NCBI GenBank assembly: GCA_947561715.1
Contig: OX387205.1
Span: 5,399,001 to 5,463,000 of the forward strand
Direction of reading: 5' to 3'
DNA: 64,000 bases
Source of the DNA: Ascidia mentula
Taxonomy: Eukaryota; Chordata; Ascidiacea; Phlebobranchia; Ascidiidae
A program made the translations under genes and the position numbers. Numbering within the stretch: position 1 is the stretch's first letter; every line of letters starts with the position of its first letter. Under the pieces are notes generated by a model. The model was given only the letters and a program-made list of their open reading frames with translations. It was not told the origin of the DNA and searched no databases. Positions 13,022 through 47,654 of the stretch are shown piece after piece.

Positions 13022-13339
13022 AACTGGTCACCAAACCAACCATGGGATAGGGACCAGACCCATTGGTAAGTGAGGATATTTTGTTGGGAAACTAACATAA
13101 AACCTCCAGGTTATATCGTGTGGTTTAAAGTTAATGTTACAGAGGATAGAGATGTAACGTACATAGTTCCACAAACCATTCCATCAACCAACCAACACCA
13201 ACCTATAAACAACCAACACAAACCACCCAGAAACACCAACCACGACTATGACGTCATAAAGCAAAATGAATACGTAAACAAGAATGTGGGAAACACTTCC
13301 ATGACTGGGGGTGAAAGTTCGTACATGAAAGTCGAATAA
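13022..13339 (+). pseudogene. CTLR class I remnant: last two exons only
   Basis: Two exons match the 3' end of the class I lectin-like receptor genes: a 44-bp juxtamembrane exon (13,022-13,065, donor GTAAGT) and the tail exon (13,110-13,339, ending in TAA). The tail keeps the motifs YIVP, YDVI, YVNK and YMKV. No lectin, stalk or transmembrane exons are found upstream; the sequence before it is repeat DNA. It is therefore a 3' fragment left by a duplication or deletion, although the tail frame itself is still open. It lies nearest the minisatellite and may mark the edge of the cluster. Confidence 0.75.
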
Positions 13340-14245
13340 TTTGTTGCCATTCTTTTAATCAATATATATTAAAAAAAACATCTTGGTTGGATGATCAAGT
13401 AGCAATCTAGGCCAGTCCTAGGTATCACTTTTTTAAGCTGTATTTACGTACTAAGGTTTTGTATATGGGCACCCTGCTCAACTATAAATAAATAATTTTG
13501 TCGAATTATTTATAAATGAGCAAGGTGCCCACAGTTGTTGTATACTCTGTCCCCGACGTTGTTTGTTATGTCCTGGTTTCTTGTTCGTATTTCTGGTTAT
13601 GTTATGTAAGTTACTTGTATATCCACGAACTTCTATGTCGCTTTGTAACATCAGGAAATATCAATTATCGTATATAAGGTTGTGGGTGTGTGATGTTGTT
13701 ATCTTGTGATGTTGTGATTACAAGATAGGGTGGAAATCAATTGATGTGATAATAACTACACTGATAGACTTGATCCAACTTGTACATCTACATGGCGTGT
13801 TATTGCATTGGGAACAGTTTGCCAAAGAAAACTGCTTTCCCAAATAACAATAGCAGAAAGCACCTTGTGACGAAACAAGTGGTAATAAAGGTACAAAGAA
13901 TCTGCTTGGGATTGACAATAAAGAATAGCAATAACAGAAAGTTACACACACCGCCACCAACCGACTGATCAATACCACGGAACCAGAGGAAGATGAACCA
14001 GCAACAACCAGGTTACACAAGCAGTCATTTCGGCTTACCATGGCTTGTATCAGTCTGCGGAGACCGTGAATATCAAACGAAGTCCATGAATACAATAGAT
14101 TGACTTCACACTAAAGAATTTCTACCGCAAATACTATTTTGTTTCACCTATAATTCCATGTGATCTCCAAAACGCATTTTTTCTACTTAAGGGCACTCTC
14201 AGCAACTGTGTATGTGTTTGTTTGCACAAAAATTTCCACCACAAA
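13340..14245. other. Intergenic, no gene seen
   Basis: AT-rich sequence following the class I tail remnant. It includes 3'-flank sequence shared with the other class I copies (for example GTTGTGGGTGTGTGATGTTG, also near 18,850). Short open frames on both strands have no recognisable domain, signal peptide or splice context. Confidence 0.5.
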
Positions 14246-14249
14246 TAAA

Positions 14250-14440
14250 TGGTACTTCACATTACTCAACTCTAGACCACCTCCACCACACAAACTCACG
14301 CGAACAAACTTATAACACGGAAGCACGTGGGTACAACAATGACGTAGAAGCACCACGTCATACTAACTGTAATGGTGCTCAACAATTATCAAAACATCAC
14401 GTGACTGCATTAGTGCAGAAAATAACGCCTACCCAGGTCT
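14250..14440 (+). pseudogene. CTLR class II tail exon relic
   Basis: In one frame this stretch reads like the end of the class II receptor tail, with DHLHHT, then QTYNTEARGYN, then a region matching CNGAEQ. The rest of the tail exon and all other exons are missing, and the terminal YAIV motif is replaced by unrelated sequence. It is a fossil of a class II gene between two class I copies. Confidence 0.65.
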
Positions 14441-15929: not shown

Positions 15930-18466
15930 ATGAGACTGTTCACGGTGTCGTTTTTAATTTGCTTTCCTGTTACTTTGTCCCAGACCTGGCACTCACCAAC
16001 TTTCATTAACTTCGAATATTTATTCGGTCAATCAGTGAATTCGTATCAAGATGCTGAAAACGCATGCGCTAACCATGCAGCACAGGTTGCTCATGTCAAA
16101 CCACCTTTAAACACAAACACAGCAAAATCAGCCCTTTTTCAATTTCTTGTCGGAAAAGATAAAGTCGTTCACAGGTGCTTGAGAATTGATTTTGGGAATC
16201 ATTTCCTATTCTGTTGCAAGTGGCCCTGACGATTTCTATCTTATTTTAATTATGTCCACTATCTAAGAAACTTTAGTTTCAAGCTGAAATATGTCAATTT
16301 TGTTCAATTAGACAAATATATTTTGCCTTGTTTAAAGCATCATCAGTGTCTATAAAAGCAAAGCAAGAATTAGGTTCAAATAAAAGAAAGGCTCTCCACT
16401 ACATCACAACAAGCTAAGCTTAACATGCAAAAGTTGCGGTATATTTATTGCCACATGCTACATATGTAAGAAACAATATGTGGGACAAACGAAAAACAGG
16501 TTTGCCACACGTTGGTCGGGTGCCAAGTTCGACATTTCGCAACGATGGAACAGCGCTCTTGCATCATAATAAAGATTGTCATCCACGCTCGTTTTCTCAA
16601 CATCCACCCATTGAACAATGTTACGAAGTCACTTTCGTTAAACAACCACGTACCGCAAATTTGGACATGGCTGAAGATAAATAGTTAAACAAAACAAACG
16701 CAAAAAATAATATACAAAAAATGATTTCACCGCGGTGCAATGTTGTGTTTTTTTGTTCACATTGCTTCAAGCAGATATTGTTTCTTTATCTTTCCCGTGT
16801 TTATCATCACCGTGTTTTTACTTTTTTCCTGTGTCCTTATCTTTTCCGTGGTTTCTCAACGCTTCCACCCGTTGCATGTGGCAGGTTTTTAGTTGTGTAA
16901 AGGGCGTGTTGTGAGGTAGTGGAGAGCCTTTCTTTTATTTGAACCTAATTCTTGCTTTGCTTTTTTGGACACTGATGAAGCTTTTAACAAGGCGAAATAT
17001 ATTTGTCTAATTGAACAAAATTGACAGATTTCAGCTTGAAACTAAAGTTTCTGAGATAGTGGTCTTTGCAGTTATTCGAAATTAGTATAGGCCTCGTTTA
17101 GTAGAGCAAAGAAACATACAGACAGTTCACGAATGTTTGTGATAATCTGGATATTCGCTTTAGCAATATTTAGGGAGCAAAACTGGTTGTTATAATCCAT
17201 AAAAACGACACTTCAGTATATTAATGCTGGACAAAAACTTGTTAGATTATGACACAAATATATTTCGTATTTGAAGACCCCCCATACTCGTTCTACATCG
17301 GAGCAAAACGAGGTGCAGGAACAAACATATATAAGTGGACAGAGAAAATATTGACAATGGACAGTGGGCAACAGGGGAAACGATCGCAACAGGAGAAAAG
17401 TATTGTGTGATAATGGGTTCATTAACCAACAATTGATTCAACATACAAGTGGAGAAGTACCGAATGCAATGTTGCTTCGGGATATATTTGTGAGCGTAGT
17501 GCATATGGTAAGTTAAGAATTGGGATATCATCAAACGATTGTTGGGATAAACATGTAACTCATTTGGTATAAAAGTGCGACGACAAAAACAATATTAATC
17601 GATCAATTTCCTGTGTTTAAGCCACCACAACTACTAAACCAAGTTTAACCACAAGCACAACAAGAACCACCCATTTTCCCACCACAACCAGTTCCACACA
17701 AACCACCATCACAATGGAACCAACCACCAGCGAATCTGAACCAACCACTTTTACCACCACTTCCATACGTGAGTAAATCGCATTTTTATGTCAAATATTT
17801 GCATCACATTCAAACTTGATTCTTTGTTTCAACAGCAATCTACAATCGTTCATCGGACGAAATTAACAACAACATTTTAAGGATAGTTACTGTATTGGTC
17901 GTACTTGTGGTCATCGTCATCGTATTGATTATCGCCATGATTTTCTTCTATAACCGGACAAAACACCAGTAAGCAGCCATGTAAAAACTGTTATCACTAA
18001 AACATGTTTTCAACATTTGTCTTAGATTTAGAGTTTTATGTTTTAATAATTTTTAACTTCGTTTTTATGTCTGCTGGCTTTTTGTGAGGAAAGTAATCTT
18101 ACAGAGTTCACTCATAGAAAGGTTAAAGCTTGTTGTTCATATTCGCAGAGCTGGTCACCAAACCAACCATGGGATAGGGACCAGATCTATTGGTAAGTGA
18201 GGATATTTTGTTGGGAAACTAACATAAAACCTCCAGGTTATATCGCGTGGTATAAAGTGAATGTTACAGAGGATGGAGATGAAACGTACATAGTTCCACA
18301 AACCACTCCATCAACCAACCAACACCAACCTACAAACAACCAACACAAACCACCCAGAAACACCAACCACGACTATGACATCATAAAGCAAAATGAATAC
18401 GTAAACAAGAATGTGGGAAACACTTCCATGACTGGGGGTGAAAGTTCTTACATGAAAGTCGAATAA
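15930..18466 (+). pseudogene. CTLR class I gene, broken by frameshifts
   Basis: The same six-exon plan as the intact receptors is visible: 15,930-16,174, 17,277-17,507, 17,622-17,768, 17,836-17,968, 18,149-18,192 and 18,237-18,466. Exon 1 encodes a signal peptide (MRLFTVSFLICFPVTLSQ) and the first half of a C-type lectin domain. It has one extra T near 16,137 relative to the 20.3-kb gene, which changes its end phase from 1 to 2. Exon 2 has lost 4 bp near 17,343 and gained 1 bp near 17,428, giving an in-frame stop between the two sites. The stalk, transmembrane and tail exons are all still open, with YIVP, YDII, YVNK and YMKV motifs. A Penelope-like fragment sits in the first intron. Decay appears recent, because the upstream region and exon 1 closely match the gene at 20.3 kb. 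Confidence 0.8.
16257..17062 (+). mobile_element. Penelope-like element fragment with inverted terminal repeats
   Basis: Inverted repeats of about 157 bp flank the fragment: 16,257-16,413 and 16,905-17,062, both containing CAAGAATTAGGTTCAAATAA or its complement. Inside, from about 16,424, one frame reads a C-x2-C motif followed by CYICKKQYVGQTKNRFATRW, which matches the GIY-YIG endonuclease end of Penelope-like reverse transcriptases. The frame then shifts and ends with NLDMAEDK and a stop at 16,684. No reverse transcriptase is present, so this is a 3'-end copy. Inverted flanking repeats are known for this element class. A CTGATGA plus GCGAAA pattern near 16,970 may be a worn hammerhead motif. 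Confidence 0.75.
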
Positions 18467-20287: not shown

Positions 20288-22083
20288 ATGAGGCTGTTCA
20301 CGGTGTCGTTTTTAATTTGCTTTCCTGTCACTTTGTCCCAAACCTGGCACTCACCAACTTTCATTGACTTCGAATATTTATTCGGTCAATCAGTGAATTC
20401 GTATCAGGATGCCGAAAACGCATGCGCTAACCATGGAGCACAGGTTGCTCATGTCAAACCACTTTTAAAGACAAACATAGCAAAATCAGCTCTTTTCAAT
20501 TTCTTGTCGGAAAAGATAAGGTCTTTAACAGGTACTTGAAATTAGTATAGGCCACGTTTAGTAGAGCAAAGAAACATACAGATTCAGTCTATTACAACTG
20601 GAAAAAAATTGTTAGATTGTGTCACAAATATATTTCTTATTTGAAGATCCACCATATTCGTACTACATCGGAGCGAAACGAGCTGCAGGAACAAAAAACT
20701 ATAAGTGGACGTATGGAGCAGATGCTGTCAATGGACAGTGGGCTGCAGGGGAACCGGATACAACAGGAGAAAAGTATTGTGTGATAATGGGTTCATTAAC
20801 TTCACTTGATTCAACATACAAATGGAGAAGTACGGAATGCAATGTTACATCAGGATATATTTGTCAACGGATATCGGGAGGTTAGTGCTTATATTAAATA
20901 TGTAGACTATTGACATTGCGTCGTCCACTTCGGAAATATAGTATAGTACCGCGTAATATGGTTTCTAACTTCAGCTGCGAGCATATCATCATCTACAATA
21001 ACAAGCAAAACATCAACATTGGTGACAACAACCCACGCCAAAGACACATTTCTATCAACAACCAACAAGAAAGGTAAAATCATTTTGTTTGCCAAGCATA
21101 TTTATGTAAACGTTGCCTATATTTTGCCAGAAGGCCAAGCGACAAAGCACAAGAAAAATAGCTACAATGGTGCCCAGGGTGTGATTATAACTCTTCGGGT
21201 TTCAATGCCAATAAATTCCTTTGTTTTAAATATTATTTCTCTTGTCAAAAACGGTTGATTAAATGCCGCAGTCAAAAAATTAAATGGAGATTATTTAAAT
21301 CGATATTTTTCAGTCACTTCTTCAACAACAGTTGATGTAAATTCACCATCAAACGTCATGGATTCTTCATCTATCGTTGGTGCAGTTGTTGGGGTTGTGA
21401 TCGTCATCTTCTTATTAATCCTCGCCACTGGATTGGTTTTATGGAGGAAACGCAGGTAAAGTTATCAGTATGACGTAATAATGGGTTGCAGAATGTTTTT
21501 CAGTTCCAAAACAACCGACTCAAGTAAACCGTGTTGTGTTTCCGATTTAAGCAGAGCCGACAACCAGCAGTTTGTCAACGGGACAAGGGAAGGAGAAGAG
21601 CCAGGTAAGCAATCAGTTTGCGCGGTTGTTTTGGTTTCGTGCTTTAACAAAAGGTTTCTTTCTACGGAAACAATGTAACTTAACGTCGTTTCTTGGTATT
21701 GGAGATCACAACATCCTCAAACTATCATAACTACAGTGTTTGCACAACTGCTACTTTCAACGTTTGTTTCCCAAGCACAAGAAACCTCCCCAACCCCAAC
21801 CACAACACCAGCACAACCGATCTACGCAACCGCAAAACCACGAAAGAAGAAAAACCAACCAAAAGCAGGAACCTCATCCAGGGTTGAATCTACCAACGAA
21901 GCGGTTTACGACCAAGTTAATAATGATGAGGATTGTGACACGTACGACCACCTCCAACACACAAGCTTACATGCACAAACTTATAACACGGAAGCACATG
22001 GGTACAACGATGACGTAGATACATCACGGGACTGCAATGATGCGGAACAAACTTATGCGATTGTCAGGAAAGGAAACGAATAA
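20288..22083 (+). CDS. C-type lectin-like receptor, class II (ITAM-like) tail
   Basis: Six exons join with consistent phases: 20,288-20,531, 20,647-20,880, 20,975-21,073, 21,314-21,455, 21,504-21,604 and 21,776-22,083 (1,128 nt, 375 residues). Signal peptide residues 1-18. A C-type lectin domain covers about 19-160 with the four canonical Cys (contexts ENACA, KYCVI, TECNV, YICQR) and a YIGAKR block at the WIGL position. EPN appears as EPD and WND is not kept, so calcium-dependent sugar binding is doubtful. A Ser/Thr stalk (about 160-210) precedes a 24-residue membrane segment (213-236) ending in RKR. The tail has Tyr at 290, 318, 330 and further on; E-x2-Y-x2-V-x8-Y-x2-L at 315-333 is nearly an ITAM, and YAIV is close to the end. 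A type I membrane receptor that could signal by itself; ligand unknown. Confidence 0.85.
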
Positions 22084-23421: not shown

Positions 23422-23458
23422 AGAAACGTATATTTCTTGACATAAATTTCTAGTTAAG

Positions 23459-27849: not shown

Positions 27850-28448
27850 CTTTGACAAACAACAACAGTTCGTCTCGTCGGTTGTTACCGGGGCAGTGAT
27901 CGGAATATTCATGTTCATAATCATCTGTGTTGTTGTTGTTTTCCTATGGTGGAAAAAACACAACAGGTGAATAAACGCTCGTGATTTAATTTAAACGTGA
28001 ATTTGGAGCGTTTAAAACTATCTGTGCATTTAAATTTGTTTACAGAAGCAACCAAGAAACCAGTGATGAGCAGGCAGATGACAAACAAGCTGGTGGTATG
28101 GAAGCAAATATTATAAAATATTCCTTAGACAATTATTTTCCTTCTGTTCCATACAGAGATACTTTGTGGGATAATTGCGTCTAAGGTTCCTCAACTTTCA
28201 ACTCGACAACAATATAGAAATATATTGGATTCATTCTCAAACGATTTACAACCTATGTTGTTCAAGCAGAAGAAGCCAATGGTGACCCCAATGAACCGAC
28301 TTACGCCACCGCTAAACCACGAAAGAATAGAAACCAACCCGACTCTATGGCGCCACCACACGACAAAGTTTACAGTCGCGTGGGAGAGGAACGACGTGAG
28401 AATGATGATAACGATACTCTGCACTGCTCTGGATCGATTGAAACGTGA
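27850..28448 (+). pseudogene. CTLR class III remnant: transmembrane and tail exons
   Basis: Exons 4 to 6 of a class III receptor are present: 27,850-27,966, 28,046-28,095 and 28,267-28,448. Exon 4 is 117 bp instead of 112 because of a 5-bp insertion (TCTCG near 27,877), which shifts the frame before the membrane segment. Exons 5 and 6 are intact, with YATAKPRK and VYSRV motifs. No lectin or stalk exon exists upstream. The presumed promoter module is split by the LTR element at 23.3-27.4 kb. About 300 bp of its 3' flank matches the flank of the minus-strand class III gene. Confidence 0.75.
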
Positions 28449-29092: not shown

Positions 29093-30775
29093 ATGGAGTT
29101 TCAAGTCGTTTTAAGTTTACTTTTGTTTCCTTGTTGTTTCGCACAAACTTGGCACGAATTCGACGAAGTGAAGCATTATTTGATCGGACCTCGAGTTAAC
29201 TCATACACAGAAGCTGAAACAGCATGCAGTGGAAAGGGAGGAGGTCTCGCCGATGTAAAAACAACAGATATATTTAACTTTCTGGTGGGAAAGATTGGAA
29301 CAGTATCAGGTGAGTGCAGTGAGAATGGGCAACAATCACATGTGTGTGAATCTAACACTTTTTTGGTAATTTTATTCAAGCGAACCCAGTATTGAATCAC
29401 CTTCCACCTCCAAATGACGTAGAATAAAAGCCAGTAATGAAGTCGAGATTATTAAAATTTGGATTGAATGCAGAGGGGGAGCCTTTAACTACGAAAAACA
29501 TCAATGCTGATTACAAAGTTAGAGCAAATTGAATTAATTTTTTCTGATGGTGGTTTTTGTGTACGTTTTACAGCCTCCCCATATTCAGTCTACATCGGAG
29601 CAAAACGAGATGCAGGAACAAACAACTATAAGTGGACGGATGGAAAAGATGTTGACAATGGACAGTGGGTAACAGGGGAACCGATCGCAACAGGATCCAA
29701 GTATTGTGTGATAATGAGTTCATTAACTTCACTTGATTCAACATACAAGTGGAGAAGTACGGAATGCAATGTTACTTCGGGATATATTTGTCAACGTATC
29801 GTAAAAGGTAAGTTGGCGTCGAGGCTGCTTTAAAACGTAATCATATAACAACTGTGGGGCTAAAGATATATTTTATTTTGTATCAAAATGTAACAACAAT
29901 AATAATAATCGGTCTATTCCGTATGTTTAAGCTTCATCAATTTCTACATCGCCTTCAACCACAAGCACAACAACAACCACTCATTTTCCAACCACAACCA
30001 GTTCCACACAAACCACCATCACAATGGAACCAACCACCAGAGAATCTGAACCAACCACTTTTACCACCAATTACATACGTGAGCAAATCGCATTCTTTGT
30101 GAAATATTTGCATCACTTTTAAAGTTGATCCTTTGTTCAACAGCAATCTACAATCGTTCATCGGACGAAATCAACAACATTTTAAGGATATTTACTGTAT
30201 TAGTCGTACTTGTGGTCATCGTCATCGTATTGAATATCGCCTCTATGATTTTCCTCTACAACCGGACAAAACACCAGTAAGCAGCCACATAAAACCTGCT
30301 TATATCGACAAAATTGTTTGAGTATAAACATTACCACAAACATTTCGACGAAGTTTCAACGATAAAAAGGCAAAAACGTTGTTCCTTTACCTTGTGATTG
30401 CTGGTTTTCAGTGATGAAAATAACGTTTATTATAGAAAGGTTAAAACTTATTGTTCACATTCGCAGAGCTGGTCACCATGGGATAGGGACCAAACCTATT
30501 GGTAAGTGAGGATATTTTGTTGGGAAACTAACATAAAAACCCCAGGTTATATCGCATGGTTTAAAATGAATGTTACAGAGGATGGAGATGAAACGTACAT
30601 AGTTCCACAAACCATTCCATCAACCAACCAACACCGACCTATAAACAACCAACACAAACCACCCAAAAACACCAAACATGACTATGACGTCATAAAGCAA
30701 AATGAATACGTAAACAAGAATGTGGGAAACACTTCCATGACTGGGGGTGAAAGTTCGTACATGAAAGTCGAATAA
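29093..30775 (+). CDS. C-type lectin-like receptor, class I (ITIM-like) tail
   Basis: Six exons with matching phases: 29,093-29,309, 29,574-29,807, 29,932-30,078, 30,144-30,276, 30,467-30,501 and 30,546-30,775 (996 nt, 331 residues). I prefer the ATG at 29,093 over 29,042 because it gives a compact signal peptide (MEFQVVLSLLLFPCCFAQ). The lectin domain (about 19-150) has the four Cys, a YIGAKR block and EPI in place of EPN. A Thr-rich, probably O-glycosylated stalk (151-199) leads to a membrane segment at about 212-236. The tail carries YIVP, YDVI, YVNK (a YxN GRB2-type site) and, near the end, SSYMKV, which fits the ITIM pattern. Exon 5 is 9 bp shorter than in the 15.9-kb copy, in frame. This is the only intact class I gene in the window. 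Ligand and cell type are unknown. Confidence 0.85.
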
Positions 30776-33280: not shown

Positions 33281-35760
33281 ATGAAAATATTGACCATAAT
33301 ACTTGGGTTCATGTTTTCTGTTGTTTTTGGACAAACTTGGCACCAAGATGATGACTATCATGAATATTTGATCGGACCTCAAGTTAATTCATACCAAGAT
33401 GCTGAAACTGCATGCAGTTCGCATAATGCGGGTCTTGGCAATGCCTACAAAGCCTTCGTCGCCCAGCCTAAAACAACAGCTATATTTAACTTTCTGGTGG
33501 GAAAGATTGGAACAGTAACAGGTATTTGAAACGTAATGAAATTGTTTGTTGTCTGTGATATTGTAGCGAAAATAACATCAACAACGTCCCCAATGTTTGT
33601 GGCTCACGTTCTATGCTTAACTGCTTAAGGATTGCAAAGTAATTATTTCTGTATATTTTCACGTCCCATAACGCCCCGTATGGTACGTAAGGGTATAATG
33701 TAGGTTGTTAAAAAATGGCGACACTGGGTTTTATCATAATCGGAATCACATTAACATATTTCGCCCATTCAGTGGAACCAGTGACCGGTATAAGTCCTTA
33801 GAGCAGGTCCATGGCCCTTTCTCTATTGGGGATGCAGTGTTCGCATCATATTTGATTCTCTAGTCATTTAACAAAGCTACAAAAGTTTATTTGAGTCAAA
33901 CATCTGCTACAAGTTAAACTTAAAGAAAGTTTGCGTGTGCATCAACAAATTTTGCCCATTTTTCTGGTTGCCTGGACTACAGGTGGTTTAGATCTAAATT
34001 ATTTAATGTTTTGTTCGTAACTCTAAATTACACACTGTGTTCACAAATCAAAAAAAGGTTAAATAATTTTTTTGAAAGTATTTTTTGTTTTTGTGTTATT
34101 ATGCCTTACGTAAAATATCGGAAAATAACATGGAAATATGCAAATAAGGTATAAAGAATCTTCTGATGTTGCTTTTAGCCAAGCCAAACTCGTTCTACAT
34201 TGGAGCGAAACGAGCTGCAGGAACAAACATCTATAAGTGGACGGATGGATCAAATATTGACAATGGACAGTGGGCAACAGGGGAACCGATCGCAACAGGA
34301 GAAAAGTATTGTGTGATAATGGGTTCATTAACTTCAAGTGATCCAACTAACAAGTGGAGAAGTACGGAATGCAATGTTACTTCGAGATATATTTGTCAAC
34401 GAAAGCCGGAAGGTAAATCTCATAAAACGAACAAAAAAACCTAATTAAGATCTTCTTAGATGAAATCTTGGTTCGCATTATTTTTTCTGATCGAATCCCT
34501 CTTTAACTAGATCACGTTTTGTGTTTGTACTGTTTTCACGGTTTGAACAATTCCACTACAAACGCAAACTTCAGTGAAGGCCAAAAGCTGAGGAACGAAT
34601 AATTTTTAAAATATTCATAAAGATGTGTGCGTACACAATAATATTAATTACATCCCTTAAACCAGTGGTTCCAAACCTTTATTCCTAACCTTTATCATTA
34701 TCATCTTTTGTAGGCCATTCTTTCGCTTCGAGAAATATGTGAGACCACTATGGATGTGAAACTATGTAGATTTGCTTTTAAAGTAAACAACTTCTTGCAT
34801 TACCTCGGGATCTTAATGGCCACAGACTGTAGTACGCATCACTTAGGTTGACTAAAGACGTAATGTTTTTGTTTTCCAACCTGTTTCTGGTTGAAAAGGT
34901 CAGAACCTTTTCCGTTTAACAGTTATGAGAAAAAGAACAACCGTGTGAGTGCGTCATAAACACTTGTAACTAGAATGCGGGTAAAATTGTCATGCAATAA
35001 TGCGCATTGTGAGGTCTGAAGTCGTTGTAAATAATGTTAATTTAAATTGTTACTGACGCTGCCAGGCATATCTATTGCTGAATACTGCCCTTCTAGCAAA
35101 CTTGATTTTATTGACGTTTCTCAGCCTTTATGAAGGCTGCTGCATAACAGCCGAAACGTTGAGAAACGTCAATAAAATAAAGTTTGCCAGAAGGGCAGTA
35201 TTCAGCAATGTTAATTTAGTTGTGTAAGATTTAGGGGTGTGTTTGTTGTTTGTTGATTACGTGTTCAGCTGCGGCTGCGTTTCCCTGACTCCTGACTTCT
35301 CATTGGTAGCGAACCAGACTTTGGTTAGTTTGTTTATTTGTCTCCAGGATACGAACGAAATACTTGTGCAGGATAGCAGACGGCGATTCTACACAATTGC
35401 AAGCCAAAATGTATAATAATATTTCACCACAAAACTACCGATTATATACCACTAAAGGTATTCGATCGCGTGAGACCACGATACAATAATTACATCTTAC
35501 GAGCCATTCTCCTATGCCGTTCCAGGAACGGGAGTTATCTCCTAGCGTAAAAAAACTGGAAGTCACTCCATTACCTCATGAAAAGTTAATTTGAGCATTA
35601 CATCATAGCATAAAACGTTACAGTTGCTCGCGTACCAGAAACACTTCGAGCCTAAAGTTACTAAAATCAATAAAAACGCGAATCTAAAATGTTGTTTAGT
35701 TACAAACACAAAGAAAACCACAACTCAACATAGCTCCATGGCCACACCACCAAGCACAAT

Positions 35761-35803
<43 letters not shown>

Positions 35804-36829
35804 CTACATTCGAGCAATGGAATATCAAACGTCACCGTTCATAATGTTGGGGTCAATAGTTCAAGTAAACCAGGTAAAATAGTACAGTAATGTTTGCAAG
35901 TTGCATGGACTGCCGACTACGAAAAACTACAATGTTCGAACAACAATACTATCCACTCCAATTCCCATACGGAAAAAAAGTTTCGTTTTAAACAGTTTGG
36001 TTTTATCAATTTATGCCCGCACGGTTTCGCAGAAGTTTCCAAATGTTCATTATTTTCAGTCACTTTCCCAACTACAGTTGATGTGAATTTACCATTAAAC
36101 ATTACGGATTCATCATCTATCGTTGGTGCAGTTGTTGGGGTTGTGATCGTCATCATCTTATTAATCCTCGCCACTGGACTGGTTTTATGGAGGAAACGCA
36201 GGTAAAGTTATCAGTATGACGTAACAATGGGGTACAGAAAGTTTTTAAGTTCCGACACAACTGACCGAAGTAAACCGTGTTGTGTTTCCGATTCAAGAAG
36301 AGCTGACAACCAGCAGATTGTCAACGAGACAAGGGAAGGAGAAGAGCAAGGTAAGCAATCAGTTTGCGCGCCTGTGTTGGTTTCGTGCTTTAAACAAAAG
36401 GTTTCTTTCAACGGAAACAAAATAACTTAATGTCGTTTTTTAGTATTAGGAAACAACACACCAGCAAACTATCATAACCACAAATATGTTGTAGTGAATT
36501 ATGCACAACTACTACTTTTAACGTTTGTTTTCTAAGCACAAGAAACCTCCCAAACCCCAACCCCGATCTACGCAACCGCAAAACCACGAAAGAAGAAAAA
36601 CCAACCAAAAGCAGGAACCTCATCCAGGGTTGAATCTACCAACGAAGCGGTTTACGACCAAGTTAATAATAATGAGGATTGTGACACGTACGACCACCTC
36701 CACCACACAAGCTTACATGCACAAACTTATAACACGGAAGCACGTGGGTACAACGATGACGTAGATACACCACGTGACTGCAATGGTGCGGAACAAACTT
36801 ATGCGATGGTCAGGAAAGGAAAGAAATAA
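33281..36829 (+). CDS. C-type lectin-like receptor, class II tail, long poly-Thr stalk
   Basis: Exons: 33,281-33,521, 34,179-34,412, 35,700-35,873, 36,060-36,201, 36,250-36,350 and 36,537-36,829 (1,185 nt, 394 residues), all phases consistent. The ATG at 33,281 gives the signal peptide MKILTIILGFMFSVVFGQ; an in-frame ATG at 33,248 would add 11 residues. The lectin domain keeps the four Cys, with an insertion around LGNAYKAFVAQPK in its first half. The stalk exon holds an ACA/AAC trinucleotide run coding about 14 Thr in a row, likely to vary between individuals. The membrane segment (about 237-260) and RKR stop-transfer match the 20.3-kb gene. The tail has the same ITAM-like pair (VYDQV, x8, then YDHL) and ends with YAMV instead of YAIV. 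Intron 2 (1.3 kb) contains a long hairpin. Confidence 0.85.
35074..35209. repeat. Long hairpin with hammerhead-like half in intron
   Basis: Two arms of about 50 bp pair almost perfectly (ATTGCTGAATACTGCCCTTC and its complement at the right end, two mismatches). The centre reads GGCTG, loop, CAGCC, GAA, ACGTT, GAGA, AACGT, C, which matches stem II, GAA and stem III of a hammerhead ribozyme. The CTGATGA core is changed to TTTATGA and stem I is not formed. Probably a relic of a ribozyme-bearing retroelement end. Confidence 0.55.
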
Positions 36830-37676: not shown

Positions 37677-39386
37677 TCACGTTTCAATCGACCCAGAGCA
37701 GTGCAGAGTATCGTTATCATCATCCTCACGTCGTTCCTCTTCCACGCGACTGTAAACTTCGTCGTGTGGTGGCGCCACAGAGTCGGGTTGGTTTCTATTC
37801 TTTCGTGGTTTAGCGGTTGCGTAAGTCGGTTCATCGGGGTCACCATTGGCTTCTTCTGCTTGAACAACATAGGTTGTAAATCGTATGAGAACGAATCCAA
37901 TGTATTTCTATCTTGTTGTCGAGTTGAAAGTTGAGGAACCCTAGACGCAATTATCACACTATGGAACAGAAGGACAATAAATGTCTAAGGAATATTTTAT
38001 AATATTTGCTTCCATACCATCAACCTGTTTGTCATCTGTCTGCTCGTCACTGGTTTCTTGGTTGCTTCTGTAAACAAGTTGAAATGCACAGATCGTTTTA
38101 AACGCTCCAAATTCACGTTTAAACTAAATAACGAACGTTTATTCACCTGTTGTGTTTTTTCCACCATAGGAAGGCAACAACAACACAGATGAATATGAAC
38201 ATGATTATTCCGATAACTGCTCCGGTAACAGCCGACGAACTGTTGTTGTTTGTTGGAGCTGCTACAAAAGATATTCGTGATTTACAAAAGATAAACAAAC
38301 CATAAACGTTAAGTAAGTAATTATTTTTTTAAACATGTGCATTCGGAGATGACGATGCCTGGATTATATATCAGTGAAAACAAACACATTGTTATTGACA
38401 AACAACTTAGGGGTTATGATATAACGGTTCATATAAAAGTCCTTGTCGGCCGTAAGACTGACTGTGAAACTTTTCTTTCTGACAAATAATTTAACCTGGT
38501 GAAGTGATTGGTTGGGGGCACCCGTGGTTGTATTCACACTGGTTAATGTTGATTTACCTGAGCTGGTTAAAGTTGTACTTTTGGTGTTTTTTACAATTGT
38601 GGTCGTTGTTGTAGCAGCTAAATTGTACAAAGAAGACAGAATTTAAACATTTATTTTCTGTGTCGTTTATATGGAATATACTGCGAGTTACCATTCGGTA
38701 TTCGTTGGCAAATATATCTCGATGTCACATTGCACTCAGTACTTCTCCACTTGTATGTTGAATCAAGTGAAGTTAATGAACCCATTATCACACAATACTT
38801 TTCTCCTGATGCGATCGGTTCCCCTGTTGACCACTGTCCATTGACAGCATCTGCTCCATACGTCCACTTATAGTTGTATGTTCCTGCAGCTCGTGTTGCT
38901 CCGATGTAAAAGGAATATGGTGAACCTCAAACAAGCAGGAGAATCGAAAAAATACAATTTAGAAACACGGAAGATTTACAGCTGCTAAACATAACTTTTA
39001 TCACACAAGCAAACAATCTGCTTTGTTGAAAGTCGATACTCAAACCAAATTCAAGAGCATATTTTAAAAAGACGAACTGCAATATCTGTTGTTAACGTTT
39101 TTTTACATAACAAAATACTAACCAACAACCAACTGCAACTAATTTCCTTTTAGTTTCAAGCATTGCAAATACCTGGAACTGTTCCAATTTTTCCCACCAG
39201 GAAGTTGAATTCATTTGTTGTTTTGACATCAGCTGGATGTGCGTTTATTGCACTGCATGCAGTTTCAGCTTCTGTGTATGAATTAACTTGAGGTCCGATC
39301 AAATATTCGTGGTAGTCATCCAACTTGTACCAAGTTTGTGCCAGAATGCCAGGAAAGCCAAGCAAACACAACGCAATCACAAGCAT
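37677..39386 (-). CDS. C-type lectin-like receptor, class III tail
   Basis: Minus-strand exons: 39,173-39,386, 38,692-38,925, 38,558-38,617, 38,147-38,258, 38,018-38,067 and 37,677-37,858 (852 nt, 283 residues), all phases matching. Signal peptide MLVIALCLLGFPGILAQ, then a lectin domain with four Cys; one YIGAKR residue differs (YIGATR). The stalk is short (about 20 residues, Thr-rich) and ends at a CTCAG donor followed by GTAAAT. The membrane segment (about 183-202) is followed by FLWWKKH. The tail is acidic and has only two Tyr sites, YATAKPRK and DEVYSRVE; the second is a lone YxxV after acidic residues. The membrane exon has tandem acceptors (TAGCAG), so one extra residue is optional. A class III upstream module lies at 39,486-39,770. 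Confidence 0.85.
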
Positions 39387-40854: not shown

Positions 40855-43800
40855 TTATTCGTTTCCTTTCTTAACAATCGCATAAGTTTGTTCCGCACCA
40901 TTGCTGTCACGTGATGTATCTACGTCATCGTTGTACCCACGTGCTTCCGTGTTATAAGTTTGTGCATGTAAGCTTGTGTGTTGGAGGTGGTCGTACGTGT
41001 CACAATCCTCATTATTATTAACTTGGTCGTAAACAGCTTCGTTGGTAGATTCATCCCTGGATGAGGTTCCTGCTTTTGGTTGGTTTTTCTTCTTTCGTGG
41101 TTTTGCGGTTGCGTAGATCGGTTCTGCTTGGGTTGGGGTTGGGGAGTTTTCTTGTGCTTGGAAGCAAAATATAGCAGTGTTGGGTGCGGAATATTTTGTA
41201 ATAAAGTTTGCATTTGTGTTAACGGGTAGAGTGCACACCCGTTGGGGAAATGCATTTGTTTTGTGCAAAGTACATTTTTATGTTAAATCCAGAAGGTTTA
41301 CTGGCATTGCAGCTAAGTTGGTTCAACCACTTTTTCTCCGAAGTCGAAATGAGCTCCAGGTAAGGTTTGAACTCACGACCTATCAGGCGGTTGCACAAAA
41401 CGTTTCTATGTTAAATCTATTTAGAAAATTTATCCCAACGAAGCATTGACAAATGCACGAAATCATTCAATGACAAACTACAATGACCTCCGCTTACCTG
41501 CGGCTTCTCCGTCCATTGTGGTTTTTCCAATCTGTTTGTTCCGAGCTCTGGTAAAATAAACAAAATAAGGTTTTAAGATCGCACAAGAACAAATGGCGCC
41601 AACAACATGTAACCCATTGTTACGTCATACTGATAACTTCACCTGCGTTTCCTCCATAAAACCAATCCAGTGGCGAGGAACAATAAGATGATGACGATCA
41701 CAACCCCAACAACTGCACCAACGATAGATGAAGGACCCGTGACGTTTGATGGTGAATTCACATCAACTGTTGTTGGAGAAGTTTCTGAAAAATTGGGCCA
41801 CAGCCCGCATTATTTGGTTAGAACTGAGCCCCGTCAAATTGTTTTATATACTGTAGCGACAGAATATGTTGTAAAGATGTACCGTCGCGGTTTGCGTTAG
41901 TTTCAGTGCGTGTTGCTTTTTTCTTGCGATTCTCTCACGTGTCATGTGTCACGCCATGTTCGCATCATTCGATTTACTACGAATAAAGAGCAAGCACGCC
42001 ACAATACCAAGACTGATAGATTTTAACCCCAAAATTATCGCTTCTGTGATTGTGGTATAATCATGAATCTTATATTTATTTAAGTTATTTTAAACCAGGT
42101 TAATATTTTCGCTGCAAAAGCTTAGAAATAGAAAATGTTATTAAATTTATCCAATAGAGACATGTTTAAGACGGTTTTAATCGCCTTTCATTCCAATTGG
42201 ACAATGTCTACTAAACATACGGTATATTGTATAGGCTACTAACTTCTGTATGCTCGATGATACTAAGTTGGCAGTTGATTAAATCTCATACAAGACTTTC
42301 AATATTAGGTTTTAAAAACAGCAAAAAAAAAACCTGATATGGTTGAAGTGTTGACTCTGTCATTATGAGTGGAAACTATTATGTTTGTTTCGTCTTTACC
42401 CTGTAGAGTGGTTCTAGTTACACTTGTAGTTGGAGGAAATACTGTTGTTGTCGTTTTTATTGTTGTAATTGTTTTCTTTGTAGAAGTTGTTGTAGAGGAT
42501 GTGCTCGGGGCTGCAATTCACAACACATCTTCTCGTTACTCTCCAGTATTGCTTCAATGTATACTCAATGCAAATTTATAAGCAAATTAAACGATGTCTG
42601 TGCTGCAGCGTACCAAATGATTCGTGTCGACTGCTATGCTGAATCTAAAGTCTGCTTGTGTGTTCTTGTTGTAGACTACTGAATTTAAAATTCCATGAAC
42701 AGACTTATTTATCAATAAAAACACACGTTTGCAATACCAGGTGGCGTAAAGTTTAATTTCCAAGCGCGTTTAACTAGAGTTTAGCACGTGACTGAATTGC
42801 AGCGAATTACTATAAAAAGAACGTGCGAACGTCACAGCGCGATGGCGAGAATATTAGGCTCGAGAGAAACTGTCGAAGGATTACGAAATGGGCGTTTTAT
42901 AACGAAGTGTCAGAATAAATGTTTTGTCCAGCAGGATGCCAGAAATTGTGGAAATTCTTGCAGGAAAGCTTAACTATGCTTGCGCCCTTTCCGTCTGGTG
43001 TTCTAGTGTTGAGTTTCAGGAAACATGCGGCGTGGTCAGAGCTAGGCCAGGGAAAACATGCGTGTTGCCACAGTGCGGTGCGCATTTTAAAGAATTTTGT
43101 TTTCACAAACTAATGACGTTCTTTCAAGTTTTTTTATAACTTACCTTCCGGTTTTTGTTGACAAATATATCCCGAAGTAACATTGCATTCCGTACTTCTC
43201 CACTTGTATGTTGAATCAAGTGAAGTTAATGAACCCATTATCACACAATACTTTTCATCTGCTGCGATCGGTTCCCCTGTTGCCCACTGTCCATTGACAA
43301 TATTTGCTTCACCCCACGTCCACTTATAAATGTTTGTTCCTAAATCTCGTTTTGCTCCGATGTAGAACGAGTATGGTGGACCTTGTAACAAGTAAGTGAG
43401 AATCACCAATTACATTATTTGCCCGTTTTTAGTACGTTATTGTAGCAAAAAAAGTATAAAAAAAAGCAAAATGAACAGTCTGGCGACCCACCATAAATGT
43501 TTTCCGAACCAGAATTTGCGGACAACTGGTTAACACAGAAAAGAAACTCTCGAAAATATTGGCGAATGTTCAAGCCTGTGATGAATACTTATGCGTTATC
43601 TGTTGCTGTTATTATATCATATTTCAACTATAGTTGACGGTCAGCAAGTATCAAAAATAGCAAATATTCCAAGCGCAATACTTTACATATCCTGCTTATA
43701 CCTGTAACATTCCCAATCTTTCCCACCAGGTAGTTAAATATATCTGTTGTTCCAACATTGGCGAGAAATGCATTGTGTGCACTGCATGCTGCTTCAGCTA

Positions 43801-43918
43801 CTGTGTGTGAATTAACTTGAGGTCCGATCATATATTCCCTAAAGTCGTACTTGTACCAAGTTTGTCCAAAAACAACACCAGAAGACCAAATAACACAGAG
43901 CGCAATCGTAATCAGCAT
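40855..43918 (-). CDS. C-type lectin-like receptor, class II tail (minus strand)
   Basis: Exons: 43,702-43,918, 43,145-43,381, 42,400-42,510, 41,643-41,784, 41,498-41,547 and 40,855-41,156 (1,059 nt, 352 residues). The start is the ATG at 43,918, giving a signal peptide ending VVFGQ. Exon 2 is 3 bp longer than in relatives, adding one residue in the loop after YKWTWGEAN. The Thr/Lys-rich stalk (152-188) is unlike the others. The membrane segment (about 209-232) and tail match class II, with VYDQV, x8, YDHL and a final YAIV. The 50-bp juxtamembrane exon has the length found in class III genes, not the 101 bp of the other class II genes, so it is a structural hybrid. About 150 bp upstream is a TGATTAGAATTCCCACACA block of the shared module. 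Confidence 0.85.
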
Positions 43919-44526
43919 CACGGCTCATTTGCAGTAGATTTACACGTTCTTAAAACAAAAGCTTGAGACTTAAACATATTATTTGAATCTGATCTAGCTT
44001 GCGGACAAAACAAATCGTTACAAACGCATCAGCAATCAACCTCACTCTACACGGGATGTGAGGTAATTGTGAAATGTGTGGGAATTCTAATCACGAAGGT
44101 GTAACATATTGTCTGAAGACATAATGTTACAAATGACCTGCGCAGGGGTTTTGAATAACACGATTGACAACTTTTGCATAACGTTGTCTTTGTTTAGTCG
44201 ACAGTGCATGAGAACTTGTATTCTTTGAAATAGGCTGATAATTTCCATAGCATTTAACGCCACCGAACTCGTCATTATGTGGAAAAATAACATAATTGAA
44301 CGACAAACCATGCTCCAAACATGGTTTCTTAAACTTTTATGTTCCACAACCGGATATGAATCGATGTGTGGGAGTTCTATCTTGGGAACACAAACACGCC
44401 TTTACACTTGAAACATGATATACTGGGAAATACTTCATATCAACAACATGATTTTAAAACGACGAAGGGATATTTAAGTGGTTCCGGCAACATCACAATT
44501 TACTTTTGTGTTTCTTAAAGGACTTT
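43919..44526. other. Upstream region of minus-strand class II gene
   Basis: Holds two reversed copies of the shared CTLR module: near 44,070-44,100 (GTGTGGGAATTCTAATCACG) and near 44,350-44,395 (GATATGAATCGATGTGTGGG). No exon is supported here. Confidence 0.45.
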
Positions 44527-44721
44527 TCACCAGGAAGTTGAATTCTGTTGTTGTTTTAACATTGGCCGGATATGCATTTTGTCCACTGCATGCTGTTTAG
44601 CTTTTAGGTATGAGTTAACTTGAGGTCCGATCAAGTATTCGTGATGAGGATCAGACTCGTACCAAGTTTGAGAAATAACAACAGGAAGCAAGAATCCAAA
44701 TACCATGATCAATAATTTCAT
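44527..44721 (-). pseudogene. CTLR exon 1 relic, frameshifted
   Basis: A first exon starting at an ATG (44,721) with a good signal peptide (MKLLIMVFGFLLPVVISQ) and the conserved block HEYLIGPQVNSY. A single-base deletion after that block shifts the frame before the first lectin Cys. The homology ends abruptly at CTGGTG where the others continue to the exon 1 donor. No other exon follows. Confidence 0.75.
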
Positions 44722-45731
44722 GTTTCCAATGTACCAGCACTACACACATTCACACATATATAAAAACAATCTGTGATAATTTTAAATTACGTAATTGCGC
44801 ACAATTCAAATTTATATTTGCTGTACAATGCACAAGTTCTCAGGGTTTTTAAAGATAAATGTTAACCAAAATTTGAATAGCAGATTTACGTCACAATTAC
44901 TCATATGTAAAAATAACTCCTATGACATCAATGTAATAGGCGGACCTATTAGAGCCTATTGGAATTGGCTTTAAATAAAACAACCCCAAATTAAAATAAA
45001 GCACCCAAAGTTGCTTGTTCATGAAAAAAACTACATAACAATTATTTGTGTTACTAAACATTCCACAAACTCCTGCTAAAATCTCTGAAAATCTACTTTC
45101 TTTAATGTGCCCACAAATAGCGAATTACACCGGTAAACTTTCAAACACAACATAAACTTGTACATCTTGTAAAACTCACTATGCTGTGAACGATTTTGCA
45201 CCTAAACTTACTGAACCTCTGTCATAGAGTCACCACAAACGGCTACGTAAGAATATACGTTGTTTGGTTTCACCACAGCGTTATTGACGCAACACCGCCC
45301 ACATTCGCGTGGTTCTGATTGATAATCGAAACGCGTCACACATCGGAGAGAAGACGCGTAACTACAGTGAAAACCATTCTATAAAGGAAGCATATGACGT
45401 CTGATATTTATTTGTGGTGATGGGAGACGCATTTTTATTCCATACGGAGCACAAATTGTTTGTTAATTAATAATTACCTAATATTATTTTATTTGTAACT
45501 TTCCTGTTTTTATGGTGAAATGACAGCAAATAAGTTAACACACAAATTCACTAACTTGTATTCCAAATCACGACAGTTTTACCAACTTAGAAACCAGTCT
45601 TTGGTCAAGCTGCGATTCTACTTTAACCTAATATTAACAAAAACATACTACGGTTTCAACCTAATATTAACAAACACATGCGATAAGGATATGGTTTTAC
45701 CGGAGAATAACAAACTTCTTGTTGAATCAAA
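44722..45731. other. Intergenic, no gene seen
   Basis: AT-rich sequence with no conserved exon or clear repeat. The ends border a CTLR relic and a CTLR gene. Confidence 0.45.
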
Positions 45732-47654
45732 CTAACTTACAATAACCATGAATGTATTGGAAATGTTACATCTGATGACGTTTCTATCGTCGAGATTCAG
45801 AGCAGTGCAGAGTATCGTAATCATCATCCCCACGTCATTCCTCTCCCACCTCTCTCTCTTGGAAACTTCGTCGTGTGATGGCGCCACAGAGTCGGGTTGG
45901 TTTCTATTCGTTCGTGGTTTAGCGGTTGCGTAAGTCGGTTCATCGGGGTCACCATTGGCTTCTTCTGCTTGAACAACATAAGGTTGTCAATCGTATGAGA
46001 ATGAATCCAATGTATTTCTATATTGTTGTCGAGTTGAAAGTTGAGGAACCCAAGACGCAATTATCCCACAAAGTATCTCAGTATGGAACAGAAGGACAAT
46101 AACTCTAAGGAATATTTTATAATATTTGCTTCCGTACCATCAACTTGTTTGTCATCTGTCTGCTCGTCACTGGTTTCTTGGTTGCTTCTGTAAACAAGTT
46201 GAAATGCTCAGATAGTTTTAAACGCTCCAAATTCACGTTTAAATTAAATCACGAACGTTTATTCACCTGTTGTGTTTTTTCCACCATAGGAAGGCAACAA
46301 CAACACAGATGATTATGAACATGATTATTCCTATCACTGCCCCGGTAACAGCCGACGAACTGTTGTTGTTTGTTGAAGTTGCTACAAAATGCAACAAAGA
46401 ACGTACGTCAGTGATTTGTGTTTTAAAATAAGTGCATTTAGAAAATGTTGTTAAAGTTGTTATTGTTTATATGGAGCTAAAAACCCTAATTCTTTTTTTT
46501 ATCGCTGCAATATTTCTTTGACTTTCTTGGCATCGTCAGCATTAAAAAGTCTGTATATTTTTACTTTTGTTTAAACTGCGTTGCATTTTTAGCGATGATG
46601 ACGATGCCTGGAAATATACATCAGTGAAAACAAACACATTGTTATTGACAAACAACTTAGGGTTATGATATAAAGGTTCATATAAAAGTAGTCAAAAGTA
46701 AACTTAATTGTTTGTCGGCCGTAAGACTGACTGTGAATGTTTTCTTTATAACAAATAATAATTTAACCTGGTTAAGTGATTGGTTGGGAACCCGTGGTTG
46801 TCTTCACACCGGTTGATGTTGATTTACTTGATCTGGTTAAAGTTATACTTTTGGTGTTTTTTACAATTGTGGTCGTTGTTGTAGCAGCTAAAAGGTACAA
46901 AGAAGACAGAATTTCAACATTTATTTTCTGTGTCGTTTATATGGAATATACTGCGAGTTACCATTCGGTATTCGTTGGCAAATATATCTCGATGTTACAT
47001 TGCATTCCGTACTTCTCCACTTGTATGTTGAATCAAGTGAAGTTAATGAACCCATTATCACACAATACTTTTCCCCTGTTGCGACTGGTTCCATTAATGC
47101 CCACTGTCCATTGACAATATTCGATCCATCCGTCCACTTATAGATGTTTGTTCCTGCAGCTCGTTTTGCTCCGATGTAAAAGGAATTTTGTGGAACTCGA
47201 AGAAGAAGAAAAATCGAAAAAAATACAATTTGAAAACACGGAAGATTTACAGCTGCTCAGCGAAACTTTCATCACACAAGCAAACAAACTGCTTTGTTGA
47301 AAGTCGATACTCAAACCAAATTCAAGGGCATATTTTAAATGGACGAACTGTAATAACTGTTTTCGAACGTTTTTAAGGTTGCAAAATACCCAACAATCAA
47401 CTACAATTAATTTACTATTGGTTCCAAGCATTGCAAATACCTGTAACAGTTCCAATCTTCCCCTTCAGGAAGTTGAATTCTGTTGTTGTTTTAACATTGG
47501 CGAGAAATGCAATGTGTGCACCGCATGTTGTTTCAGCTTCTGGGTATGAATTAACTTGAGGTCCGATCAAATATTCGTGGTAGTCATTCAACTTGTGCCA
47601 AGTTTGTGCCAGAATGCCAGGAAAGCCAAGCAAACACAACGCAATCACAAGCAT
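45732..47654 (-). CDS. C-type lectin-like receptor, class III with altered tail end
   Basis: Exons: 47,441-47,654, 46,962-47,195, 46,828-46,887, 46,267-46,381, 46,138-46,187 and 45,732-45,967 (909 nt, 302 residues). Signal peptide and lectin domain closely match the 37.7-kb gene. The usual acceptor of the membrane exon is mutated (CAG to CAA), but the TAG three bases upstream keeps the frame. In the tail a short GA-repeat insertion (45,848-45,862 region) adds 5 bp relative to the paralogue. This removes the VYSRV motif and gives a new, longer C-terminus with no Tyr. EPI is EPV here and the preceding Gly is changed (LMEPV). It is either a functional variant with one remaining tail Tyr or an early pseudogene. 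Confidence 0.7.

What the first reader, a model, noticed from the sequence alone, without database searches (positions are those of the whole stretch)
13022..47654. Cluster of NK-receptor-like lectins with three exchangeable signalling tails
Six open genes and several broken copies share nearly the same lectin domain but carry three unrelated cytoplasmic tails: class I (ITIM-like), class II (ITAM-like) and class III (one YxxV). Lectin domains lack the EPN/WND calcium residues, as in vertebrate NK lectin receptors. Paired activating/inhibitory receptors with similar ectodomains are a known immune theme; finding the activating-type motif encoded in the receptor itself, in one invertebrate cluster, would be a distinct system.
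Basis: partly seen in the sequence, partly recalled or inferred. Interest (0 to 1): 0.85.

Follow-up and report, generated by a model that had tools for sequence, protein, structure and literature searches.

The report
Sea-squirt lectin receptors with swapped tails
A sea-squirt genome carries a large family of cell-surface lectin-like receptors in which nearly the same outer binding segment is joined to different inner signalling tails, a self-contained relative of the paired on/off receptors known from vertebrate immune cells.

Summary
The genome is an ascidian. The window has six open C-type-lectin-like genes with one exon-phase pattern, one frameshifted copy and orphan tails. Corrections: (1) The proteins are type I, unlike vertebrate NK lectin receptors. 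(2) There are two tail families, not three: classes II and III are homologous and ITAM-like (YxxV-x8/9-YxxL). The 'one YxxV' class III is a degraded local form: 17 of 20 pattern matches keep the second Tyr codon, two of them out of frame. (3) Class I is ITIM-like only by a motif not kept at the same tyrosine in relatives. (4) The window is largely a near-identical inverted copy of part of a roughly 330-kb array on another chromosome, where tails follow a C>A>B order. Lectin exon 2 is far more alike between tail classes (dS 0.15-0.32) than the tails (dS 1.2-1.3), and that likeness stops at the exon edges, so ectodomain exon and tail have most likely been exchanged. SYK-type kinase genes are present; SHP was not resolved. 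Signalling is inferred. New variant of a known kind.

The parts
13022..13339 (+). orphan class I (tail A) exons 13022-13065 and 13110-13339, no ectodomain found upstream
   Evidence: tblastn; sequence; tail read
14242..14385 (+). degraded class II (tail B) exon remnant
   Evidence: tblastn (52% identity over tail residues 47-92)
15930..18466 (+). G2: class I gene, exon 1 and exon 2 frameshifted (broken copy); exons 15930-16174, 17277-17507, 17622-17768, 17836-17968, 18149-18192, 18237-18466
   Evidence: 13 internal stops when joined as it stands
20288..22083 (+). G3: open class II gene; exons 20288-20531, 20647-20880, 20975-21073, 21314-21455, 21504-21604, 21776-22083; EPD/WRS lectin domain; tail YATA, YDQV-x8-YDHL, YNTE, YNDD, YAIV
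28046..28448 (+). orphan class III (tail C) exons 28046-28095 and 28267-28448, downstream of a retrotransposon
29093..30775 (+). G4: open class I gene; exons 29093-29309, 29574-29807, 29932-30078, 30144-30276, 30467-30501, 30546-30775; tail YIVPQ, YDVIKQNEYVNK, SSYMKVE
33281..36829 (+). G5: open class II gene; exons 33281-33521, 34179-34412, 35700-35873, 36060-36201, 36250-36350, 36537-36829
37677..39386 (-). G6: open class III gene; exons 39386-39173, 38925-38692, 38617-38558, 38261-38147, 38067-38018, 37858-37677; tail keeps YATA and YSRV, second ITAM-like Tyr is Asn
40855..43918 (-). G7: open class II gene; exons 43918-43702, 43381-43145, 42510-42400, 41784-41643, 41547-41498, 41156-40855
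44528..44721 (-). G8: broken first-exon fragment
   Evidence: tblastn (two pieces in different frames)
45732..47654 (-). G9: open frame, class III layout, but the tail differs from other class III tails after DEV (shifted frame), so both ITAM-like tyrosines are absent; exons 47654-47441, 47195-46962, 46887-46828, 46381-46267, 46187-46138, 45967-45732

Best explanation
A family of type I, self-signalling C-type-lectin-like receptors of an ascidian, working like paired immune receptors. Outside: a signal peptide and a lectin domain that has lost most calcium/sugar ligands, so probably binding a protein or another ligand, on a Thr-rich stalk. Inside: either an ITAM-like tail (classes II and III: YxxV-x8/9-YxxL after a shared YATAKPRK stretch) expected to be phosphorylated by Src-type kinases and to recruit a SYK-type tandem-SH2 kinase (activating), or a multi-tyrosine tail (class I: YIVPQ, YDVIxQxxYVN, YMxV) expected to recruit YxN-binding adaptors such as Grb2 and perhaps phosphatases (modulating or inhibitory). 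The family grew by tandem duplication of a three-gene C-A-B unit, while the exon for the binding half of the lectin domain was repeatedly exchanged between genes with different tails, so that one binding specificity comes with several signal outputs. Shown: gene anatomy by sequence, tail families, order of tails, exon-limited similarity, presence of SYK-type kinase genes. Inferred: expression, phosphorylation, SH2 partners, sign of the signal, ligand.
For: Six open models with one exon phase pattern. Lectin_C match. Tail tyrosine modules kept in divergent copies: tail A2 relatives, 43-47% identical to tail A (one partial 56%), keep Y(I/N)xPQ, YDVIxQPDYVN and YMRV in 6 of 6; YxN is kept in 11 of 11 A, 6 of 6 A2, 6 of 6 A3, 6 of 7 A4. 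ITAM-like pair in 11 of 11 tail B, 2 of 7 C, 1 of 1 D, 3 of 3 E tails; shuffled tail B gives it in 1.3%, shuffled tail C in 0.4%. Exon 2 against tails, median dS: tail A against tail A2 genes 0.21 in exon 2 but 1.32 in the tails; A against B 0.15 in exon 2 (within A 0.12, within B 0.17); B against C 0.20 in exon 2 but 1.17 in the tails. Exon 1 between the same classes is 0.49-0.72. Exon-2 tree: 33 rows, 6 tail types, 15 changes where 5 is the least and 21.4 the shuffled mean. Exon-2 similarity is exon-limited: 314 of 314 between-class pairs above the shuffled 95th percentile in the exon, 41 and 45 of 314 in the introns on either side. Tail order C>A>B in 35 of 58 same-strand steps on C1, shuffled mean 19.2, none of 10000 as high. 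Two intronless open frames with tandem SH2 and a kinase domain, one compared with PDB and matching SYK/ZAP-70.
Against: No transcripts or biochemistry. The ITAM-like pair has V, not I/L, in its first half in all 11 class II tails, so no strict ITAM is in the window. The window's own three class III tails lack the second or both tyrosines. Class I has no ITIM conserved in place, and a YxN arises in 47% of shuffled class I tails, so its weight lies only in its conserved position. Tail E is a weak match to tail B (E 0.07-0.24, 36-37% identity); its kinship rests on motif order. No SHP-type gene could be assigned: SH2 and phosphatase (list cut) matches did not fall together among the listed rows. 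The exon-2 tree is poorly resolved (21 of 30 inner branches under 80%). Tail labels on it are clustered above chance (0 of 200 shuffles as low), so exchange is not free. Intron flanks of exon 2 exceed the shuffled 95th percentile in 13-14% of pairs rather than 5%. Within tail A2, exon 1 is no more diverged (0.22) than exon 2 (0.28). Codon-level constraint could lower dS in exon 2.
Confidence: 0.6

Rival explanations
1. All tails are activating or docking tails, with no inhibitory partner. Class I is a Grb2/PI3K-type adaptor-recruiting tail, and the family is a set of phagocytic or pattern-recognition receptors with different downstream strength, not on/off pairs.
For: YxN kept in nearly all class I relatives held, ITIM not kept at the homologous tyrosine: 4 of 6 A2 (at another Tyr), 1 of 6 A3, 0 of 7 A4. 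A known ascidian precedent is an ITAM receptor of hemocyte aggregation and phagocytosis (passage).
Against: The tails alternate in C-A-B order, which suits complementary outputs. 11 of 11 class I tails keep an SxYxxV that SHP-type SH2 domains could read.
Confidence: 0.3
2. Exon 2 is alike across tail classes because of protein and codon constraint rather than exchange; ectodomain and tails were joined once and have since diverged at different rates.
For: Exon-limited similarity is also what strong constraint would give; labels are partly clustered on the exon-2 tree.
Against: Synonymous divergence, not only amino-acid divergence, is low in exon 2 (medians 0.15-0.32 between classes) while exon 1 between the A, B, C and A2 classes is at 0.49-0.72 and the attached tails at 1.17-1.32 where alignable. 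dN/dS in exon 2 is 0.4-0.75, not strongly constrained. Tail types A3 and A4 occur with both exon 2 forms.
Confidence: 0.15
3. The window locus itself is largely a misplaced haplotype or assembly duplicate of C1:27.46-27.51 Mb.
For: 99.2-99.9% identity over about 13.7 kb of C1 sequence sampled in five loci (L011, L016, L018, L027, L031), within ordinary allelic divergence for ascidians (recalled).
Against: Order differs (window 47.7-49.5 kb is inverted relative to the rest); towards the left the likeness drops from 97.6% to about 85% near 18.1 kb; older dispersed copies exist on C71, C69 and C52, so dispersal is normal here.
Confidence: 0.35

Closest known systems
Botryllus schlosseri fester co-receptors (FcoR) and fester family
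   Same: Ascidian, large clustered type I receptor family with ITIM, hemITAM and YxxI/L/V core motifs in the receptor itself (passages of PMC12065747)
   Different: Ectodomain is Ig/sushi there, a C-type-lectin-like domain here; here an ITAM-like tail with two spaced motifs, C-A-B gene order and exon-level sharing of the lectin exon
Halocynthia roretzi ITAM-containing hemocyte glycoprotein (Takahashi 1997, as cited in PMC5465252)
   Same: Ascidian membrane glycoprotein carrying ITAMs itself (passage)
CiCD94-1 and the Botryllus CD94/NKR-P1-related receptor
   Same: Ascidian C-type-lectin-like receptor; for CiCD94-1 a domain without carbohydrate-binding capability (passage of PMC5465252)
   Different: The Botryllus one is described there as type II; here type I, a large array, several tails
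Vertebrate NK-complex and myeloid C-type lectin receptors (Ly49, NKG2, Dectin-1, CLEC-2, DCIR)
   Same: C-type-lectin-like domain with lost calcium site in several; ITIM or hemITAM in the receptor itself; paired outputs (recalled, and titles or starts of abstracts)
   Different: Type II topology there (recalled); no chain named as an NK receptor among the 29 PDB matches of the G5 ectodomain
Mammalian paired receptors, e.g. CD300A/CD300C
   Same: Shared ligands with opposite signals (search listing and start of abstract of PMC12447643, which counts 'gene conversion' 12 times)
   Different: Immunoglobulin-type pair; here dozens of lectin-type genes with sharing limited to one exon

Membership tests
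C-type lectin-like domain (Pfam Lectin_C PF00059) | profile match above the curated cut-off; four core cysteines | tested here: met
   E 1.6e-8 and 9e-11, above cut-off, for the two proteins scanned; Cys at AExxC, KYC, EC and YIC read in all six open models
Calcium-dependent sugar-binding C-type lectin | EPN/QPD and WND ligands (recalled) | tested here: not met
   none of 38 exon-2 rows of this type read as EPN or WND, a few unread. Of 7 rows of a second exon-2 form at C1:26.1 Mb, the script read 5 EPN; a sixth, scored SPG, reads GEPNN by eye; W motif 4 WRD, 1 WND, 2 unread
Vertebrate NK-complex lectin receptors (group V) | type II membrane topology (recalled) | tested here: not met
   order is hydrophobic N-terminal leader, CTLD, stalk, TM, tail in all six
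Vertebrate NK-complex lectin receptors (group V) | closest sequence relatives are NK receptors | tested here: inconclusive
   none of 29 PDB matches of the G5 ectodomain at E up to 0.01 is named as an NK receptor, but sequence search is weak for this fold
Canonical ITAM receptor | YxxL/I-x6-12-YxxL/I in the tail (recalled) | tested here: not met
   0 of 11 class II and 0 of 7 class III tails; matched by 1 of 1 tail D and 1 of 6 A3; V/M-tolerant form in 11 of 11 class II
ITIM receptor | S/I/V/LxYxxI/V/L in the tail (recalled), conserved | tested here: inconclusive
   11 of 11 class I tails match, but relatives 4 of 6 (another tyrosine), 1 of 6, 0 of 7; chance 12.8%
Paired receptors | near-identical ectodomains with different tails in one cluster | tested here: met
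   for exon 2; exon 1 is more diverged
Paired receptors | opposite signals on a shared ligand | not testable with these tools
   needs cells and ligand
Botryllus FcoR family | Ig and sushi ectodomain | tested here: not met
   only Lectin_C above cut-off in the one full-length protein scanned (G3; G4 scanned as ectodomain only)
SYK/ZAP-70 kinase (downstream partner) | tandem SH2 followed by a tyrosine kinase domain | tested here: met
   two SH2 matches per open frame at C67:7.965 and 7.977 Mb; L053 matches SYK (E 1e-91) and ZAP-70 (2.6e-87), best stretch over the kinase domain, though the top row is an entry named EGFR at 3.5e-101; L054 was not compared with PDB, same layout by reading

The most novel reading that the evidence does not exclude
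A germline combinatorial receptor system: one lectin-half exon is repeatedly copied, exon by exon and without its introns, between dozens of genes bearing at least two unrelated tail families (A-type and B/C/D/E-type), so that each binding specificity is kept available in activating and modulating form, as in a missing-self or allorecognition system. The exon-limited tract would point to an unusual, possibly RNA-templated, conversion.
Probability: 0.25. Interest if true: 0.85.

Novelty: new variant of a known kind. Interest (0 to 1): 0.66.

Why it matters
Lectin-type and immunoglobulin-type receptors do the same job in vertebrate NK cells (recalled). [quoted passage not shown] A lectin-type array with ITAM-like and adaptor-type tails in the same protein would show that both solutions exist in tunicates, and the exon-limited sharing of the binding half gives a direct case for how shared specificity and different output are kept together. 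My literature searches (open-access library only, mostly listings) showed no description of this family, which is not proof that none exists.

Tried and rejected
NK-receptor kinship: rejected on topology and not supported by the PDB comparison. 'Three unrelated tails': rejected because tails B and C share sequence and exon layout. Class III as a one-motif class: rejected as a local loss. Strict ITAM in the window: not found. SHP by co-location of SH2 and phosphatase matches: no assignment possible among listed rows (211 phosphatase matches, not all listed). Species name: not settled; Clavelina lepadiformis (210.1 Mb) and Corella eumyota (129.3 Mb) differ in size from this 195.8-Mb genome (search listing with starts of abstracts). 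A translation of L054 was in the wrong frame and useless. Two C71 loci were read for further tails: L055 has an A4-like tail piece, L056 only a membrane segment like that of L055. A script that read L054 before the file was laid stopped with an error and was repeated. My first exon-1 divergence figures sometimes paired a lectin exon 2 with the exon 1 of the neighbouring gene; one search repeats them with the nearest exon 1 and replaces them. Structure prediction was not run: the rule accepts only proteins that the DNA gives letter for letter, and these are spliced.

Rows dropped before counts; transcribed by hand: 23 of the 46 rows as tail A; 35 (tail B) and 24 (tail C) of the 75 rows; 82 of the 150 rows plus G2's exon 2; divergent clusters and short fragments left out. 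itself scored only 150 of 414 candidates; 33 of the 45 rows (near-copies on C1, rows without an assigned tail and rows under 200 nt left out); 28 rows, further without the broken G2 and the second exon-2 form; 23 rows, those with an exon 1 in the held sequence; 28 rows. One search counts use tails with over 85% coverage and include near-copies on C1 and C73. calcium-site counts use all 45 rows, near-copies included.

Full report
What and where. The window is G000:C73:5399001-5463000 of a 195.8-Mb genome. Its mitochondrial COX1 reads sensibly, for example with GGFGNW, when AGA/AGG are glycine (table 13), the ascidian code (the link of that code to ascidians is recalled). No annotation or transcript was available, so gene models rest on splice signals, phase and homology among copies.

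Observation. tblastn of exon peptides and reading of both strands gave seven six-exon genes, six open and one (G2) frameshifted, plus orphan tails and an exon-1 fragment. All six open models keep the same intron phases 1,1,1,2,1 and GT/AG borders. Layout: leader ending before QTW, lectin half 1 (exon 1), lectin half 2 (exon 2), Thr-rich stalk (exon 3), membrane segment (exon 4), tail (exons 5 and 6). In G6 and G9 the stalk exon ends at an earlier donor than my first guess; in G9 that donor is AA|GTAAAT. This is a type I protein.

Lectin domain. Lectin_C is matched above cut-off by both proteins scanned. Exon-2 DNA identity among the seven window copies is 83-91%; exon 1 falls into two kinds (G2 and G3 94% alike, 61-71% to the rest). 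Of 38 exon-2 rows of this type in the held sequence, none was read as EPN or WND. Seven rows of a second exon-2 form in the C1:26.1 Mb cluster have EPN in 5 by script (6 by eye), WRD in 4 and WND in 1, so a sibling form that retains more of the site exists in the same family. PDB matches of the G5 ectodomain are generic lectins.

Tails. Tail B (class II): YATA, YDQV-x8-YDHL (x9 in one copy), YNTE, YNDD, YAIV. Tail C (class III): YATA, then YSRV-x9-YDNL or YSRM-x9-YDTL in its better kept copies. Both begin with P-x-YATAKPRK-x-x-NQP or nearly so, and their membrane exons are related. Tail D, found at C1:27518544, begins with YATAKPR, ends with AEQTYAMV much as tail B does, and holds a strict ITAM (YDTL-x9-YDQL). 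Tail E at C1:25.43-25.53 Mb is a weak match to B (36-37% identity, E 0.07-0.24) but keeps YS(R/T)V-x9-YNQL and a terminal YTAV. Tail A (class I): YIVPQ, YDVIKQNEYVN (YIN in three of the copies, YDII in one), SSYMKV; relatives A2, A3 and A4 in the C1:26.1 Mb cluster keep a YVN or YIN site (19 with A2-A4 together, 18 of 19) and mostly a terminal YM, and A2 and A4 keep YDV. Counts and chance levels are given above. Of the seven tail C copies held with good coverage, four are the window's three and the C1 near-copy of G9, so 2 of 7 with the paired motif probably understates the genome: at the second tyrosine 17 of 20 pattern matches have a Tyr codon, two of them out of frame.

Genome context. The tails and exon 2 are concentrated in C1:27.29-27.62 Mb: 15 tail A, 26 tail B, 20 tail C and 66 exon 2 among the rows I transcribed; smaller groups lie on C71:10.34-10.48, C69:14.39-14.40, C52:17.43 and in the window (3, 3, 3 and 7). 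These are exon matches, not intact genes. Along C1, successive same-strand tails follow C>A>B>C in 35 of 58 steps, the reverse order in 12 and same-type in 11; shuffled mean for the first 19.2, none of 10000 as high. The window from about 18.1 to 49.5 kb matches C1:27.46-27.51 Mb, mostly inverted, at 99.2-99.9% where sampled; this includes the start of the retrotransposon. To the left of about 18.1 kb the C1 side (L050) resembles the window only as paralogs do (97.6% falling to about 85%). Duplication or assembly error cannot be told apart here.

Exchange. Pairing each exon 2 with the next same-strand tail gives tails A, B, C, A2, A3 and A4 on nearly the same exon 2, and tails A3 and A4 on both exon-2 forms. 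The exon-2 tree mixes the tail types, with weak support and some clustering. The strongest evidence is synonymous divergence (medians): exon 2 between tail A and tail A2 genes 0.21 against 1.32 for their tails; between tail B and tail C genes 0.20 against 1.17; tails within A or B only 0.05, within C 0.17, within A2 0.26. Exon 1 is 0.49-0.72 between classes A, B, C and A2, and 0.35 within A, 1.00 within B, 0.50 within C, 0.22 within A2. The 100 bases of intron on either side of exon 2 score near the shuffled level, within tail classes as well as between them, although exon 2 has median scores of 125-153 of 200. So exon 2 has a history of its own, shared across tail classes and bounded at the exon. 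With about 75 codons per exon the single dS values are rough; the contrast with the tails is large, that with exon 1 moderate.

How it most likely works. Ligand binding by a calcium-independent lectin-like face; clustering; tyrosine phosphorylation; class II/III tails dock a SYK-type kinase (two intronless tandem-SH2 kinase frames are present) and activate; class I tails dock YxN-type adaptors and possibly phosphatases. All steps after the protein anatomy are inferred. Confidence: receptor anatomy about 0.9; classes II/III activating about 0.6; class I inhibitory about 0.3.

What is known. Read as passages: PMC12065747 (Botryllus FcoR receptors with ITIM, hemITAM and core motifs; syk-family and shp-1 homologs expressed in ampullae; FcoR loci that swap motifs by alternative splicing) and PMC5465252 (Halocynthia ITAM glycoprotein, CiCD94-1). 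Other papers were seen only in listings and starts of abstracts. I therefore file this as a new variant of paired, self-signalling immune receptors, not as an NK-receptor relative and not as a wholly new system.

Noticed in passing
window 1-11780 and L049: A 34-base minisatellite of about 345 copies fills the left end of the window and similar sequence continues upstream in L049.
   Followed up: partly
window 23441-27099: Gypsy-type retrotransposon: a 228-aa frame with DUF7041 and a 1011-aa open pol-like frame (named by reading); its left part is also in the C1 copy. It lies between G3 and an orphan class III tail.
   Followed up: partly
window 18.1-49.5 kb and C1:27.46-27.51 Mb: Near-identical, mostly inverted copies on two chromosomes, with an extra inversion at window 47.7-49.5 kb: recent segmental duplication or misplaced haplotype.
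   Followed up: partly
L053 (C67:7964701-7966800), L054 (C67:7976801-7978700): Two neighbouring intronless SYK-type tandem-SH2 kinase frames, suggesting retroposition followed by duplication.
   Followed up: partly
L034-L042 (C1:26085001-26175000): Sister cluster with both EPN-retaining and EPN-lacking lectin exons and three further class I-like tails A2, A3 and A4.
   Followed up: yes
L050 about 6350-6765 (C1:27518.35-27518.77 kb): Longer tail D with YATAKPR start, a strict ITAM and further YxxL motifs, possibly close to the ancestral form of classes II and III.
   Followed up: partly
window 56787-57146 (-): Papain-type cysteine protease exon (PF00112).
   Followed up: no
   Followed up: no
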